NCBI GenBank assembly: GCA_011191875.1
Contig: DUFC01000034.1
Coordinates: forward strand, 1-64,000
DNA length: 64,000 nt
DNA from: Dehalococcoidia bacterium
GTDB lineage: Bacteria > Chloroflexota > Dehalococcoidia > Dehalococcoidales > W498
Direction of reading: 5' to 3'
Shown here: positions 26,575 to 40,731 of the stretch, piece by piece
Layout of the letters: the number at the start of each line of letters is the position of its first letter
Numbering within the stretch: the stretch's first letter is position 1
Translations under genes and position numbers: made by a program
The notes under the pieces: generated by a model
Seen by the model: the letters and a program-made list of their open reading frames with translations, nothing else
Database searches by the model: none
What the model was told of the DNA's origin: nothing

Positions 26575-27285
26575 TCAGAGGGACTTCGCCCCTTTAAAAC
26601 TCCCTTGCTCCGGTGCAAGCGAAAAAACTCCACCAGGTAATTCGACTTTTCTCAGCGCATTGGGGTTCCGTTCGTATCCAAACAAGTATTGCCCAGCATT
26701 TTCCTCAAAATACAGAACCCCACTAACATGCCGATACATCTGGAAAAGTCCAGTGCCATTTCGGTAAAGACAAGCACGAAGTTCTTCTATATCCACCACT
26801 ACTTTAAAGTCCAGAAATATGCCTATGATGTAAGGCACACTTAGCTTTTCAATCAAGGCTTGATATTTTTGCATCTTATCCCAAATGCTGTAATAGAGGC
26901 GCTCAATATTATTCTTGTTCTCGTCTTGCCTATATACTGCTATACCTTTAGCCTTAACTTGTTTAGCTATCTCGCCCTCTGTTACCTCATCTATGTGGAA
27001 GTTCAACAACTCAGCGATGCCTACAACCACCGACCTGTTATCCAATATGCACCAATCAGGGGTTTTACTCTCGACCAAATATTCATGCCTTACTTTGAAA
27101 TCGCAAGAGCCAAGATAGGCTCCTAGAATAAGCTCCCTAAAAGTATGCATTATCTGATTGGAATCATGGGGCTGCTCCCGAAACCTCTTTGCAAACCTTT
27201 GTTGGTCTTCTTCGCACAAGTGCTCAAAGCACCGATAGATAGCATAGTTAATTTTCTTGCTCCCAGCTACTTGCCCGTATTTCAT
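26575..27285 (-). CDS. putative PD-(D/E)XK nuclease-like protein coupled to the methyltransferase gene
   Basis: 236 residues, no family I can name with certainty. The central stretch KTPDWCILDNRSVVVGIAELLNF has the spacing of a PD-(D/E)XK core (PD, then E on the next strand), though the final Lys is not obvious. A later KMQKYQALIEKLSVPYIIGIFLDF resembles the supporting helix-strand of such nucleases. Its ATG overlaps the stop of the methyltransferase gene by 4 bases (ATGA), so it is translationally coupled and likely part of one modification/restriction unit. Catalytic activity is a guess. Confidence 0.5.
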   Translation of the reverse strand: MKYGQVAGSKKINYAIYRCFEHLCEEDQQRFAKRFREQPHDSNQIMHTFRELILGAYLGSCDFKVRHEYLVESKTPDWCILDNRSVVVGIAELLNFHIDEVTEGEIAKQVKAKGIAVYRQDENKNNIERLYYSIWDKMQKYQALIEKLSVPYIIGIFLDFKVVVDIEELRACLYRNGTGLFQMYRHVSGVLYFEENAGQYLFGYERNPNALRKVELPGGVFSLAPEQGSFKGAKSL

Positions 27286-28739
27286 AATTGCCGTAACTGT
27301 TCCCCTTCCTTTTGGGGTATCTTCTGCGCTTTAGGGAAAGGTAAGTTTGCTGGTGGCATCTCAACAGTTTTGCCAGCAAGAAGTTCTTCAATGGTTAATA
27401 TTTGAATTTTTGGATAATCTCGCTCCCAGAGCGGTGAGTTATAATAGCCAGCGCTAACCGCTTCAGTTTGCATCTCTCTGGTGGGTGGCTCAAGAGTAAT
27501 AAAGACGCCCATGGCACTGTGACTGGCAATATCCTTTAACTCCCTGATATCCTTGACATGAACATGACCGCTCTTGACTTGAACTACCGCCCGCTTGGCT
27601 CTGGTGGGACGCTCCTCAGAAAAGGTAATAACCCCATCAATCCCTTTATCATCACCCTTCTTTTTCTCGCCGAGGGGTCGTGCTTCAATGAGGCTCAATG
27701 CCCACCACTGGAACTGATACCTGTCCTGGTGGGCTAAAGCCTTAGCCCCAGCAGAATCCACCGGCTCACCGATAACCTCAAACTCAATTCCGGGGAAGCT
27801 GTCTTTGAGTCGCTTGCTCATAACCCTTATTGCCAGATGAGTTATATCGATACCTATCCATCGCCTATTTAATTTGTGAGCAGCGACAAGTGCAGTACCA
27901 CAACCACAGAAGGAGTCTAGGACAATATCGCTTTCATTGGAGCTTGCTTTAATAATACGCTCCAATAAGGTGAGGGGCTTCTGAGTAGGATAGCCAAGCC
28001 GCTCTTTTGCCGAGGGTGCCACGAAGGGTATTTGGAAAACATCATTTGCTAGAACACCTTCAGCTTGAAGCTCTTTGTCGCTTACTAAAACAGGTTCTTC
28101 TCCTCTTTTGAATCGATGCAATACTCCTTGAGTCTTTCGTTCAACAGAACCTTCAGTGTAAGGAATTAATATCTCATTAAAGGTATAATTATCTTCCTTT
28201 GTGTAGAAGAACACTATGTCATGAAGGCGTTGAAACTTCTTTGATGGTGCTGTCCATCTTCTATAGTGCCACACAATCTCATTCTTAAAATTCCTTGGTC
28301 CAAACACTCGGTCTAGCACTAGCTTTAGATAGTGGCTAGCAGTGGGGTCGCAGTGAAGATAAAGGGAGCCGGTGTCTTTGAGTACCCGGTGTAGTTCAAC
28401 TAGTCTAGGGGTCATCATAACCAGATACGCCATCACATCATTGTTACCCAGAACGCTATGCATGGCATCAATAAGTGTGGCTACCTCTGGCGGCGCAGCT
28501 TGAACAATATCATAGTAAGTTCTCTCAGCAATCTTATCCCAAGTCCAGGTATCAGAGAAAGCCTTTATCTGTGCCTCAGACCGCTCCCCTGTGGCTTCCT
28601 TGAAAATAATGTTATAGTCCTTTTTACTGCTAAATGGTGGATCTAGGTATATCATGTCAATAGAGTTGTCTGGGATATACTTGTGCAAGATTTCTAGATT
28701 ATCTCCAAAGTAAAGAACATTAGTCTTTAATTCATCCAT
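27282..28739 (-). CDS. beta-class DNA methyltransferase fused to an Mrr-like nuclease domain
   Basis: 485 residues. Residues ~1-320 are an N6-adenine or N4-cytosine methyltransferase with motif IV DPPF at about 33 and the SAM-binding motif I DSFCGCGTALVAAH at about 275. That order (IV before I) defines the beta class. Residues ~335-460 look like an Mrr-type endonuclease: FQWWALSLIEAR, DDKGIDGVITF and RAVVQVKSG give the D...QxK pattern. Such fusions act as combined restriction-modification enzymes or as modification subunits. RBS AAGAGGTGG precedes the ATG. The next gene starts in its stop codon. The target sequence cannot be predicted. Confidence 0.85.
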   Translation of the reverse strand: MDELKTNVLYFGDNLEILHKYIPDNSIDMIYLDPPFSSKKDYNIIFKEATGERSEAQIKAFSDTWTWDKIAERTYYDIVQAAPPEVATLIDAMHSVLGNNDVMAYLVMMTPRLVELHRVLKDTGSLYLHCDPTASHYLKLVLDRVFGPRNFKNEIVWHYRRWTAPSKKFQRLHDIVFFYTKEDNYTFNEILIPYTEGSVERKTQGVLHRFKRGEEPVLVSDKELQAEGVLANDVFQIPFVAPSAKERLGYPTQKPLTLLERIIKASSNESDIVLDSFCGCGTALVAAHKLNRRWIGIDITHLAIRVMSKRLKDSFPGIEFEVIGEPVDSAGAKALAHQDRYQFQWWALSLIEARPLGEKKKGDDKGIDGVITFSEERPTRAKRAVVQVKSGHVHVKDIRELKDIASHSAMGVFITLEPPTREMQTEAVSAGYYNSPLWERDYPKIQILTIEELLAGKTVEMPPANLPFPKAQKIPQKEGEQLRQL

Positions 28740-28769: not shown

Positions 28770-28798
28770 TTGACAAATTATATATTATATACTATAAT
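28770..28798 (+). promoter_or_regulatory. perfect consensus sigma70 promoter for a small RNA
   Basis: TTGACA (28770-28775), exactly 17 bases, TATAAT (28793-28798): 12 of 12 consensus bases at optimal spacing. No rightward protein gene follows; the next 90 bases are a structured element ending in a T-rich tail, so the promoter appears to drive an RNA. The AT-rich spacer overlaps the upstream region of the leftward methyltransferase gene. Confidence 0.8.
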
Positions 28799-28804
28799 TT
28801 TATT

Positions 28805-28897
28805 TACAGTAAGAAAGGCTCCTGGAATTCGGTTGGTCATCTGATAAAGATGGCAGCGTCTGTAGAGGCGTGGGATCCTACCGCCGGGAGCTATTTT
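28805..28897 (+). ncRNA. candidate structured small RNA beside a DUF3800 gene
   Basis: Predicted transcript of about 93 nt from the perfect promoter just upstream. By hand it folds into four helices: P1 GGCTCCTGG (28817-28825) with CCGGGAGCT (28884-28892); P2 CGGTTGG (28830-28836) with CCTACCG (28877-28883), one U-U mismatch; P3 CATCT-GATAA-AGATG (28838-28852); P4 CGTCT-GTAG-AGGCG (28857-28870). P2 closes a three-way junction with P3 and P4. P1 is followed by ATTTTTAT, so it can also serve as a terminator. It is not a tRNA (loops are 5 and 4 nt, no T-arm). It lies between two leftward genes. Several conserved RNA structures have been named DUF3800 motifs because they occur near DUF3800 genes; whether this is one cannot be told without a covariance search. 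Confidence 0.7.
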
Positions 28898-29637
28898 TAT
28901 ATACTATTTAGCCATTTATATGTTCCTGATAGTAATTGCGGAATCAGTTTGCTTTTGTGTGGCATAAACTTTATGCCATAGCCGAATACTTTACCGTCTC
29001 GCCTATACATTTTGTCTTTAATTATTAGTAAATATGAGTCTTCAATTACACCATATTTATGCTCTACAGCATTGTAAACTGCACCACAAACACAATCCGC
29101 AAGTTGTACTAAGTTAGATTGCGTCTTGGCTTTGGGTTTTACCCCCAAGATGCAATCTTTTCTAATTTCGCAGTCTGGCTGGCTCTGGATGTAGTTTAGA
29201 TAGGCATTTAACTCCTCATATTTAATTCCACCCTTATTTTCCGCATATATCCTCACTTTGTAGTCTTTATCATCACAGTACCAAGTAATGCGTTCCACCA
29301 ACCGCCTGAATGTGTAAAAATATAACCTTTTACCCTCTAATTTTGGGCTGGTATTAACAATGTCTGGGTGATGTGTATCGACTAACACTGAGCAGATAGA
29401 AAAGTCATTATTGTCTAATTCCTCGACTACAGCCTTTTTCCTTGGATGACTGAGCTCTGACCAATGGAGAACTTTATCGGCACCCAAGTTAATTCGCTGT
29501 TTTATTCGGTGATAAGCATACCCTAACGCAGTAGCCTCTTCCTGGCTAGCAATCAGCGCCGTAACAACAAACCACTTTGTTCCCTTTCCTCCTATACCTT
29601 CGTCCCCGGATTCATCTATATAAGCATACATTTCCAT
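28897..29637 (-). CDS. DUF3800 protein (RNase H-like fold)
   Basis: 246 residues. The hallmark YIDESGDEG at residue 5 carries the conserved Asp/Glu/Asp expected of an RNase H-like active site. Later conserved pieces are WFVVTALIAS, HWSELSHPRKKAVVEEL, IYAENKGG and the C-terminal LVQLADCVCGAVYNAVEHKYG with the last catalytic-type Asp. DUF3800 proteins are widespread, often near mobile or defence genes, and are of unknown function. The gene lies between the 90-aa gene and the small RNA, whose 3' end touches its stop codon. Confidence 0.88.
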   Translation of the reverse strand: MEMYAYIDESGDEGIGGKGTKWFVVTALIASQEEATALGYAYHRIKQRINLGADKVLHWSELSHPRKKAVVEELDNNDFSICSVLVDTHHPDIVNTSPKLEGKRLYFYTFRRLVERITWYCDDKDYKVRIYAENKGGIKYEELNAYLNYIQSQPDCEIRKDCILGVKPKAKTQSNLVQLADCVCGAVYNAVEHKYGVIEDSYLLIIKDKMYRRDGKVFGYGIKFMPHKSKLIPQLLSGTYKWLNSI

Positions 29638-29678
29638 TGATTAGTATCCTTAAAGCACCACTAAATTATTCCGGTTTA

Positions 29679-29951
29679 CTATTCAAAAGATTCATGCATT
29701 TTAAAATAATAGTGATAAAGCGGAGGGATTCCGCTCACAGCTTGGTTAATCTTCTTTCTAAGAGAGCATCTACTTCTGAATCCATCCTGTAATTCAATGA
29801 TATATCCATCGCCATCACTTAGACGCCTATATTCCGTAGTTTTAAGCTCCCCCTGCCAGCTTGATTCTGATTCATGGTACAACTTGTAATCAACATTGAC
29901 TATAAATTCCTCGCCCCTAGAACCGTATAGCTTGCCTTTATTTAACTTCAT
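29679..29951 (-). CDS. small protein of unknown function following proB
   Basis: 90 residues, mostly short beta-like segments: MKLNKGKLYGSRGEEFIVNVDYKLYHESESSWQGELKTTEYRRLSDGDGYIIELQDG, then basic RSRCSLRKKINQAVSGIPP. No membrane segment or signal. I recognise no domain. A good RBS (AAAGGAAG) precedes the ATG, which is only 10 bases after the proB stop, so it may be expressed from the pro operon. It may be a partner of the DUF3800 protein encoded 41 bases downstream. Confidence 0.6.
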   Translation of the reverse strand: MKLNKGKLYGSRGEEFIVNVDYKLYHESESSWQGELKTTEYRRLSDGDGYIIELQDGFRSRCSLRKKINQAVSGIPPLYHYYFKMHESFE

Positions 29952-40355: not shown

Positions 40356-40462
40356 CACCTTGACCAGTAGCCGGGTAAGCAGGGGGCGTTGAACCGCCAT
40401 CTGTATTTGGTCACTTGGGTGGTGGGAAGCTAATAGTGAAACCGACCTTACAAAGGTCGGTT
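40356..40462 (+). ncRNA. weak candidate structured RNA
   Basis: Hand folding gives an outer stem CACC-T-TGACCA (40356-40366) with TGGTCA-CTTG-GGTG (40408-40421), an inner hairpin CAG..GGCG-TTGAAC-CGCC..CTG (40380-40403) and a strong terminal hairpin AACCGACC-TTACAAA-GGTCGGTT (40440-40462). No good promoter is seen and the T tract after the last hairpin is poor. It could be an untranslated RNA, a leader, or chance. Confidence 0.3.
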
Positions 40463-40575: not shown

Positions 40576-40731
40576 GTGACTATAGAGGAAGAAAGTAATA
40601 GCCGTAACCCTAGCAGTTGTTTTGGTGCTTACTTCGAGGGCTATATTGGCGATGATTTTATCTGGGGTGACTCTAACTTGATCTACGTTGACGTTGAGGA
40701 TTTCGTAGATAGCAGTTTACCTAGCCGCTAA
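40576..40731 (+). other. short frame with RBS, possibly a decayed signal-peptide gene
   Basis: After AAAGGAAAGGAG a GTG opens a 51-codon frame (VTIEEESNSRNPSSC...EDFVDSSLPSR). In the neighbouring frame the same DNA reads KKVIAVTLAVVLVLTSRAILAMILSG, which looks much more like a bacterial signal peptide or membrane anchor before a stop. A single-base shift near 40590 would join the RBS to that hydrophobic frame. I regard it as a broken or very short gene of unknown kind. Confidence 0.25.

What the first reader, a model, noticed from the sequence alone, without database searches (positions are those of the whole stretch)
28770..28897. Independent structured small RNA with a perfect promoter next to a DUF3800 gene
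A 12/12 consensus promoter (TTGACA-N17-TATAAT) points into a 157-base gap between two leftward genes. About 7 bases downstream begins an 80-nt sequence that folds by hand into four helices with a three-way junction and ends in a GC stem plus ATTTTTAT. Seen directly: promoter, helices and absence of any rightward ORF. Known: several conserved RNA structures have been catalogued as DUF3800 motifs for their proximity to DUF3800 genes, with unknown function. Inferred: this RNA and the RNase H-like DUF3800 protein act together, for example as RNA and nuclease of a defence or toxin-antitoxin-like system.
Basis: partly seen in the sequence, partly recalled or inferred. Interest (0 to 1): 0.85.

Follow-up and report, generated by a model that had tools for sequence, protein, structure and literature searches.

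The report
Nuclease gene with a private RNA
A short folded RNA, made from its own strong promoter, runs head-on into the end of a gene for a predicted RNA-cutting enzyme (DUF3800); RNA and enzyme move between genomes as one unit, and relatives of the enzyme have their own versions of such an RNA, so the two very likely work together, perhaps with the RNA holding the enzyme in check.

Summary
28814-28900(+) is a DUF3800-VII RNA (Rfam RF02967, 51.1 bits, cutoff 36.2) behind a 12/12 promoter (28770-28798; 0.03 expected per window): a three-way junction with strong covariation.

New here: (1) In 18 of 18 DUF3800-VII/-IX pairs the RNA runs antiparallel and ends at the DUF3800 stop codon. (2) RNA class follows protein clade (8 RNA groups, 7 changes on a 109-protein tree, the minimum). 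(3) DUF3800 genes without an Rfam RNA are also enriched for a convergent consensus promoter (11/52, then 11/39 held out, against 4/388 control genes), giving RNA groups Rfam does not detect; one was confirmed by blind genome search and covariation. (4) The pair moves as a unit (an 825-bp block) and occurs on a plasmid and a phage. (5) AlphaFold models of two clades match RNase HII. (6) RNA often outlives a broken DUF3800 gene; the reverse is rare.

Best explanation: an RNase HII-like nuclease bound by its private RNA, most likely inhibited, as in type III toxin-antitoxin and AbiF systems. Partnership is strongly supported; its direction (inhibit or activate) is inferred. At locus level: a new member of a catalogued, unexplained family.

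The parts
28770..28798 (+). Consensus sigma-70 promoter of the RNA (TTGACA-17-TATAAT); start site expected near 28805 (inferred)
   Evidence: 12/12 match, 0.03 expected per window; the same promoter element lies at the same distance from the RNA in relatives
28814..28900 (+). DUF3800-VII RNA: three-way junction, closing stem followed by a T-tract that serves as terminator
   Evidence: RF02967 51.1 bits vs cutoff 36.2; fold z -3.54; covariation over 13 relatives
28897..29637 (-). DUF3800 gene, 246 aa, predicted RNase HII-like nuclease; its stop codon overlaps the RNA 3' end
   Evidence: PF12686 59.8 bits vs cutoff 21; AlphaFold pLDDT 91.4; nearest PDB folds RNase H2/HII, E about 1e-5; invariant D8, E9, D181
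29638..29678 (-). Relic of a second proB 3' end just before the DUF3800 start codon, left by the unit's arrival from a proB-adjacent site
   Evidence: Homologous to the end of proB in L014 and to the left flank of the gatA-site copy L016

Best explanation
A two-part mobile module: an RNase HII-like nuclease (DUF3800) and its private 87-nt structured RNA. Shown by computation: RNA identity and fold, promoter, tail-to-tail layout, joint inheritance and joint movement, and intact candidate active-site residues. Inferred: the RNA is made in excess from its own consensus promoter, while the nuclease has no obvious promoter and is probably read from the upstream host gene (proB here); the RNA binds the nuclease and keeps it inactive; if transcription is shut off or the module is lost, for example in phage infection, the RNA decays first and the freed nuclease cuts RNA or RNA-DNA hybrids. 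That is type III toxin-antitoxin logic with a different layout, RNA fold and enzyme.
For: Layout: in 18 of 18 VII and IX pairs the RNA is antiparallel and meets the DUF3800 stop codon, median overlap 2.5 nt (tally 125). RNA class follows protein clade with the minimum number of changes. Co-mobility: window vs L015 share exactly the pair, 825 bp; same pair on a conjugative plasmid and beside a phage repressor. Enzyme: RNase HII-like fold in two separate clades with invariant D8, E9, D181 and D/E at 133. Inhibitor direction: strong promoter on the RNA, none found for the gene; RNA kept where DUF3800 is lost or broken in L020-L022, L024, L025, L173, while every A-clade gene has its RNA; tandem RNA copies in some relatives; precedent AbiF/RCd22, a motif of the same 2017 survey shown to neutralise its toxin (PMC12373285).
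Against: No experiment on any DUF3800 protein or RNA was found. The loss pattern also fits an RNA that merely decays slowly after the gene is gone, and most VII loci were found through the RNA, which biases it. The RNA is single-copy here and lies on the other strand, unlike type III systems. Some DUF3800 clades have no such RNA, so the enzyme need not depend on one. Four divergent VII-clade genes lack a recognisable VII RNA (L017, L171, L174, L190).
Confidence: 0.45

Rival explanations
1. The RNA is an activating cofactor: DUF3800 works only as an RNA-protein particle, the RNA giving substrate recognition or sensing of an invader.
For: Same facts of pairing, layout and co-mobility as above. 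DUF3800 domains are associated with Cas12a2 and type VI-F/V-A2 CRISPR loci (PMC10910872, PMC12669027), and RNase H-fold nucleases often act with a nucleic-acid partner.
Against: No variable, guide-like segment: loops and leader are conserved between insertion sites. RNAs are kept after DUF3800 is gone, which a mere cofactor would not need.
Confidence: 0.3
2. The RNA locus controls DUF3800 expression: a convergent terminator or antisense RNA that ends or destroys the DUF3800 message, as in type I systems with convergent antisense RNA.
For: Convergent, overlapping 3' ends; read-through of DUF3800 mRNA would be fully complementary to the RNA; the opposite strand of the stem is followed by TTTCTT in the window group.
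Against: Antisense action does not need a conserved three-way junction with compensatory changes or a private fold for each protein clade. The T-run on the other strand is missing in L018 and L027.
Confidence: 0.12
3. The pair is a selfish mobile element: DUF3800 moves the unit and the RNA marks or targets the ends.
For: The unit is found after proB, gatA and a DNA polymerase gene; the minimal conserved block equals the pair.
Against: No terminal repeats or shared target identified; the proB and gatA 3' sides carry different cargo genes in most relatives, so they are general cargo slots; the relic proB tail fits ordinary recombination.
Confidence: 0.07

Closest known systems
Rfam DUF3800-VII RNA (RF02967) and its sister motifs (Weinberg et al. 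2017, NAR 45:10811)
   Same: Sequence, three-way-junction fold and neighbourhood with DUF3800; the window RNA is a member.
   Different: Nothing at the level of the RNA. The conserved stop-codon layout, promoter, co-mobility and uncatalogued RNA groups are described here; the 2017 paper is not held, so I cannot say which of these it already noted.
AbiF/RCd22 of Clostridioides difficile (type III-like; PMC12373285)
   Same: Structured RNA motif from the same 2017 survey beside a nuclease-type protein on mobile DNA; there the RNA binds and neutralises the protein.
   Different: HEPN/Abi_2 protein instead of RNase HII-like; RNA upstream on the same strand with two motifs, not convergent and single.
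ToxIN, CptIN, TenpIN, AbiQ (type III toxin-antitoxin; PMC8860590)
   Same: Protein nuclease with a private RNA; RNA type matches protein type.
   Different: Toxin is a ToxN endoribonuclease; the antitoxin is an upstream, co-transcribed array of short pseudoknot repeats.
RNase HII / RNase H2
   Same: Nearest solved fold for two DUF3800 clades; consecutive DE motif and further acidic residues in the same order.
   Different: Housekeeping enzyme without a partner RNA; almost no sequence similarity (hhalign E 0.015, probability 3%).
TPR-DUF3800 proteins of Cas12a2 and other class 2 CRISPR loci (PMC10910872, PMC12669027)
   Same: DUF3800 nuclease domain beside an RNA-based system.
   Different: No CRISPR array, Cas protein or TPR domain was seen at this locus.

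Membership tests
Rfam DUF3800-VII RNA (RF02967) | Covariance-model score above the curated cutoff | tested here: met
   51.1 bits vs 36.2, full length 1-90
Rfam DUF3800-VII RNA (RF02967) | Three-way junction kept by compensatory changes | tested here: met
   18 of 29 pairs with changes on both sides; score 0.405 vs 0.174 shuffled, 0 of 500; outer stem weaker (52% of cells paired)
Rfam DUF3800-VII RNA (RF02967) | Located beside a DUF3800 gene | tested here: met
   PF12686 gene 28897-29637(-)
Rfam DUF3800-VII RNA (RF02967) | Independent small transcript | not testable with these tools
   Promoter and terminator present; no expression data
RNase HII-like nuclease | RNase HII fold | tested here: met
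   Foldseek best hits RNase H2/HII, E 1e-5, probability 1.00, TM about 0.5 for two clades
RNase HII-like nuclease | Acidic catalytic residues (DE motif plus two more D/E) | tested here: met
   D8, E9, D181 invariant in 36 proteins, D/E at 133 in nearly all; superposition on RNase HII residues not done
RNase HII-like nuclease | Profile-level sequence homology | tested here: inconclusive
   hhalign aligns only the DE motif, E 0.015, probability 3%
RNase HII-like nuclease | Cuts RNA in RNA-DNA hybrids | not testable with these tools
   needs enzyme assay
Type III toxin-antitoxin | RNA antitoxin upstream of the toxin, same strand, co-transcribed | tested here: not met
   RNA is downstream and antiparallel
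Type III toxin-antitoxin | Tandem RNA repeats | tested here: not met
   single copy here; two copies only in some relatives: L092, L064, L080, L156, L162, L083, L185
Type III toxin-antitoxin | RNA neutralises the protein by binding | not testable with these tools
   needs co-expression and binding assay
RNA-guided nuclease (TnpB, IscB type) | RNA carries a variable guide matched to the target | tested here: not met
   loops and leader conserved between insertion sites
Type I toxin-antitoxin | Small hydrophobic toxin and an RNA antisense to its message | tested here: not met
   246-aa globular enzyme fold; RNA overlaps the gene by 4 nt only; antisense pairing with a longer message remains possible
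Cis-regulatory RNA or riboswitch | Lies in the 5' leader of the gene it controls | tested here: not met
   RNA ends in a T-tract at the stop codon of an antiparallel gene

The most novel reading that the evidence does not exclude
DUF3800 is a large superfamily of RNase HII-like nucleases in which many clades are held inactive by a private, convergently transcribed structured RNA: a widespread RNA-antitoxin defence type with more RNA classes than Rfam lists.
Probability: 0.4. Interest if true: 0.85.

Novelty: new member of a known kind. Interest (0 to 1): 0.62.

Why it matters
A whole set of DUF3800 RNA motifs has been catalogued without a known function, and DUF3800 itself is a protein family of unknown function. 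The layout rule (the RNA ends at the stop codon of its partner gene), the matching of RNA class to protein clade and the RNase HII-like fold turn this into a two-plasmid experiment, and give a simple way to find further RNA classes beside other DUF3800 genes. If the RNA proves inhibitory, it would add a new enzyme fold and a new layout to RNA antitoxin systems.

Tried and rejected
Site-specific insertion at proB or gatA 3' ends: rejected, both are slots with different cargo in most relatives. Guide-RNA idea: no variable segment. Essential link to the neighbouring DNA methyltransferase: rejected; it sits in the same proB-proA gap without DUF3800 or RNA in six relatives, and L013, L025 and L015 have the RNA without it. 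Sequence search against PDB: nothing. PADLOC: only a weak candidate-defence hit, PDC-M04A. Viral contigs with the window protein: none. RNA search over 400 genomes drawn from the phylum: only the window. hhalign to RNase HII: weak. The first fold alignment missed the closing stem because MAFFT shifted it; done again by anchors and with a given structure. Covariation counts of group A were repeated without the opposite-strand matches. The original DUF3800 motif paper is not held.

Full report
What is there. The stretch 28814-28900(+) is a DUF3800-VII RNA (RF02967): 51.1 bits against a cutoff of 36.2, full length. It follows a perfect TTGACA-17-TATAAT promoter (28770-28798), the only one in the window, with 0.03 expected by chance. 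It folds to -36.7 kcal/mol, z = -3.54, with none of 200 shuffles as stable. The genome, a 1.15-Mb assembly whose close relatives are Dehalococcoidia, has one copy of the RNA and one DUF3800 gene.

Fold support. Over 13 diverged RNAs from this class, a plasmid and a phage, 18 of 29 pairs show changes on both sides; the covariation score is 0.405 against 0.174 in shuffles (0 of 500 as high) and at most 0.154 when the partner strand is slid. The two hairpins pair in 98-100% of cells. The outer closing stem is poorly aligned between sub-groups (52% of cells), though in L018 the whole structure pairs and in L019 27 of 29 pairs do.

Layout. In the intact pairs the RNA is antiparallel to DUF3800 and its 3' end meets the stop codon: overlap of 4 nt in the window, L013 and L014; 6 nt in L015, L018 and L019; 3 nt in L026 (gene frameshifted); a gap of 5-6 nt in the phage (L172) and plasmid (L170). 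L027 is the exception in degree, with a 42-nt overlap. The sister class DUF3800-IX does the same at 8 of 8 loci, -3 to +5 nt (all 18 tallied). These proteins are as little as about 20-25% identical to the window's. DUF3800-VI at L078 differs: it lies upstream on the same strand.

Beyond Rfam. Many of the first 60 DUF3800 loci showed convergent TTGACA promoters followed by stem-rich RNAs ending in T-tracts at the stop codon even where Rfam finds nothing. Among 52 loci without an Rfam RNA, 11 have an exact -35 and a matching -10 at 50-130 nt from the stop, against 4 of 388 control genes (p=2e-8). Thirty-nine further loci fetched afterwards gave 11 of 39 (p=9e-10), only 1 of 39 on the other strand, and lower folding energy than controls (p=6e-5). 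The loci are related, so these p-values overstate independence. A last Rfam scan at E up to 1 over 16 of these loci found only one sub-threshold DUF3800 match, IX at L102 of group C, so group C may be a divergent IX.

Blind test of one new group. A covariance model of group A, built from four loci (L064, L080, L096, L107), was run over 323 genomes. Outside the model it found convergent DUF3800 genes at eight loci (L154, L156, L157, L158, L161, L162, L163, L164; L157 by matching its coordinates), RNAs without the gene (L155, L159, L160) and one with an 84-aa remnant (L167); L165 and L166 are probably chance. Covariation: 14 of 22 pairs, 0 of 500 shuffles (the alignment is fitted to the structure, which helps it). 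All 13 proteins of the A clade have such an RNA, two of them (L212, L214) judged by eye only.

Protein. AlphaFold models of the window protein (pLDDT 91.4) and of a group A protein (89.6) both match RNase HII/H2 best. D8, E9 and D181 are invariant over 36 proteins and position 133 is D or E in nearly all, in the order seen in RNase HII. A published AlphaFold analysis called DUF3800 an RNase H fold with a catalytic rearrangement (PMC10910872). RNase HII as the nearest solved relative is found here; sequence profiles alone do not show it convincingly.

RNA and protein belong together. On a 109-protein tree eight RNA groups need seven changes, the least possible; shuffles need about 32. A clade of 13 genes (YNVYCDESCH type) and several others have no such RNA, so the rule is wide but not universal.

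Movement. DNA homology between the window and L015 is exactly DUF3800 plus RNA, 825 bp, in unrelated surroundings. The unit lies after proB (L013, L014; behind proB and a small ancestral gene in the window), gatA (L016, L019) and a polymerase gene (L015). Before the window's DUF3800 start lies a relic of a second proB end (29638-29678), with a similar relic at the gatA site of L016: both copies came from a proB-adjacent ancestor. The proB-proA gap and the gatA 3' side hold different genes in most relatives, so they are cargo slots, not special targets. The same RNA-gene pair is on a conjugative Cupriavidus plasmid and in a Rhizobium phage right after an S24 repressor gene.

Unequal loss. Seven VII RNAs stand beside a lost or broken DUF3800: L025 (internal deletion leaving both ends), L024 (replaced by other genes, one reading as HicA-like by eye), L020-L022 (different truncations, all keeping promoter, RNA and the last ~31 codons), L026 (frameshift, perhaps an assembly error) and the plasmid copy L173. 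Nine pairs are intact; L016 and L023 are cut by contig ends. VII-clade genes without a recognisable VII RNA are only the long-branch members L017, L190, L171 and L174, of which L017 and L190 have their own convergent promoter and stem. Most VII loci were found through the RNA, which biases this comparison; the A clade (13 of 13 genes with RNA, three or four RNAs without gene) points the same way.

How it most likely works. Partnership of RNA and nuclease: about 0.9. Direction: RNA as inhibitor 0.45, RNA as activator 0.3, expression control 0.12, selfish mobility 0.07. The inhibitor reading rests on the strong promoter for the RNA against no visible promoter for the gene, the loss pattern, tandem RNA copies in some relatives, and the AbiF precedent, where a motif from the same 2017 survey proved to neutralise its toxin (PMC12373285). 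None of this is experimental for DUF3800.

Verdict. Its value lies in the rules that the comparison gives for the whole family and in how directly they can be tested.

Noticed in passing
window 26575-28739(-): An N6/N4 DNA methyltransferase carrying a C-terminal Mrr-like restriction domain, followed by a 236-aa protein of no known family, sits in the proB-proA gap; the methyltransferase is in the same gap in relatives without DUF3800.
   Followed up: partly
window 29679-29951(-): A 90-aa protein of no known family is an ancestral neighbour of proB in many genomes of the order, 40-64% identical.
   Followed up: partly
window 40374-40456(+): Cyclic di-GMP-II riboswitch (55.6 bits) followed by a terminator-like hairpin and only a short hydrophobic reading frame (about 40588-40682), no long ORF directly downstream.
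   Followed up: no
L083, L111, L185: Uncatalogued convergent RNA group E (CUGCGUAGCGG core) beside DUF3800, in two tandem copies in L083 and L185.
   Followed up: partly
L108, L109, L117, L181, L183, L194, L197, L206: Uncatalogued convergent RNA group B (GGAUxxCCCGUAAGGGxxAGCG core) beside one DUF3800 clade; the core is doubled in L194.
   Followed up: partly
L171 (Mycobacterium phage Mask) 2492-3226: DUF3800 gene overlapping a helix-turn-helix gene, close to the immunity repressor and the integrase, with a 169-nt gap downstream but no Rfam RNA.
   Followed up: partly
L064, L080, L156, L162, L092: Tandem pairs of the DUF3800-associated RNA (group A or IX) beside a single DUF3800 gene.
   Followed up: no
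L020, L021, L022: Three related genomes keep promoter, RNA and only the last ~31 codons of DUF3800, with different sequence beyond; the RNA there seems to end at a second hairpin inside the old coding end.
   Followed up: partly
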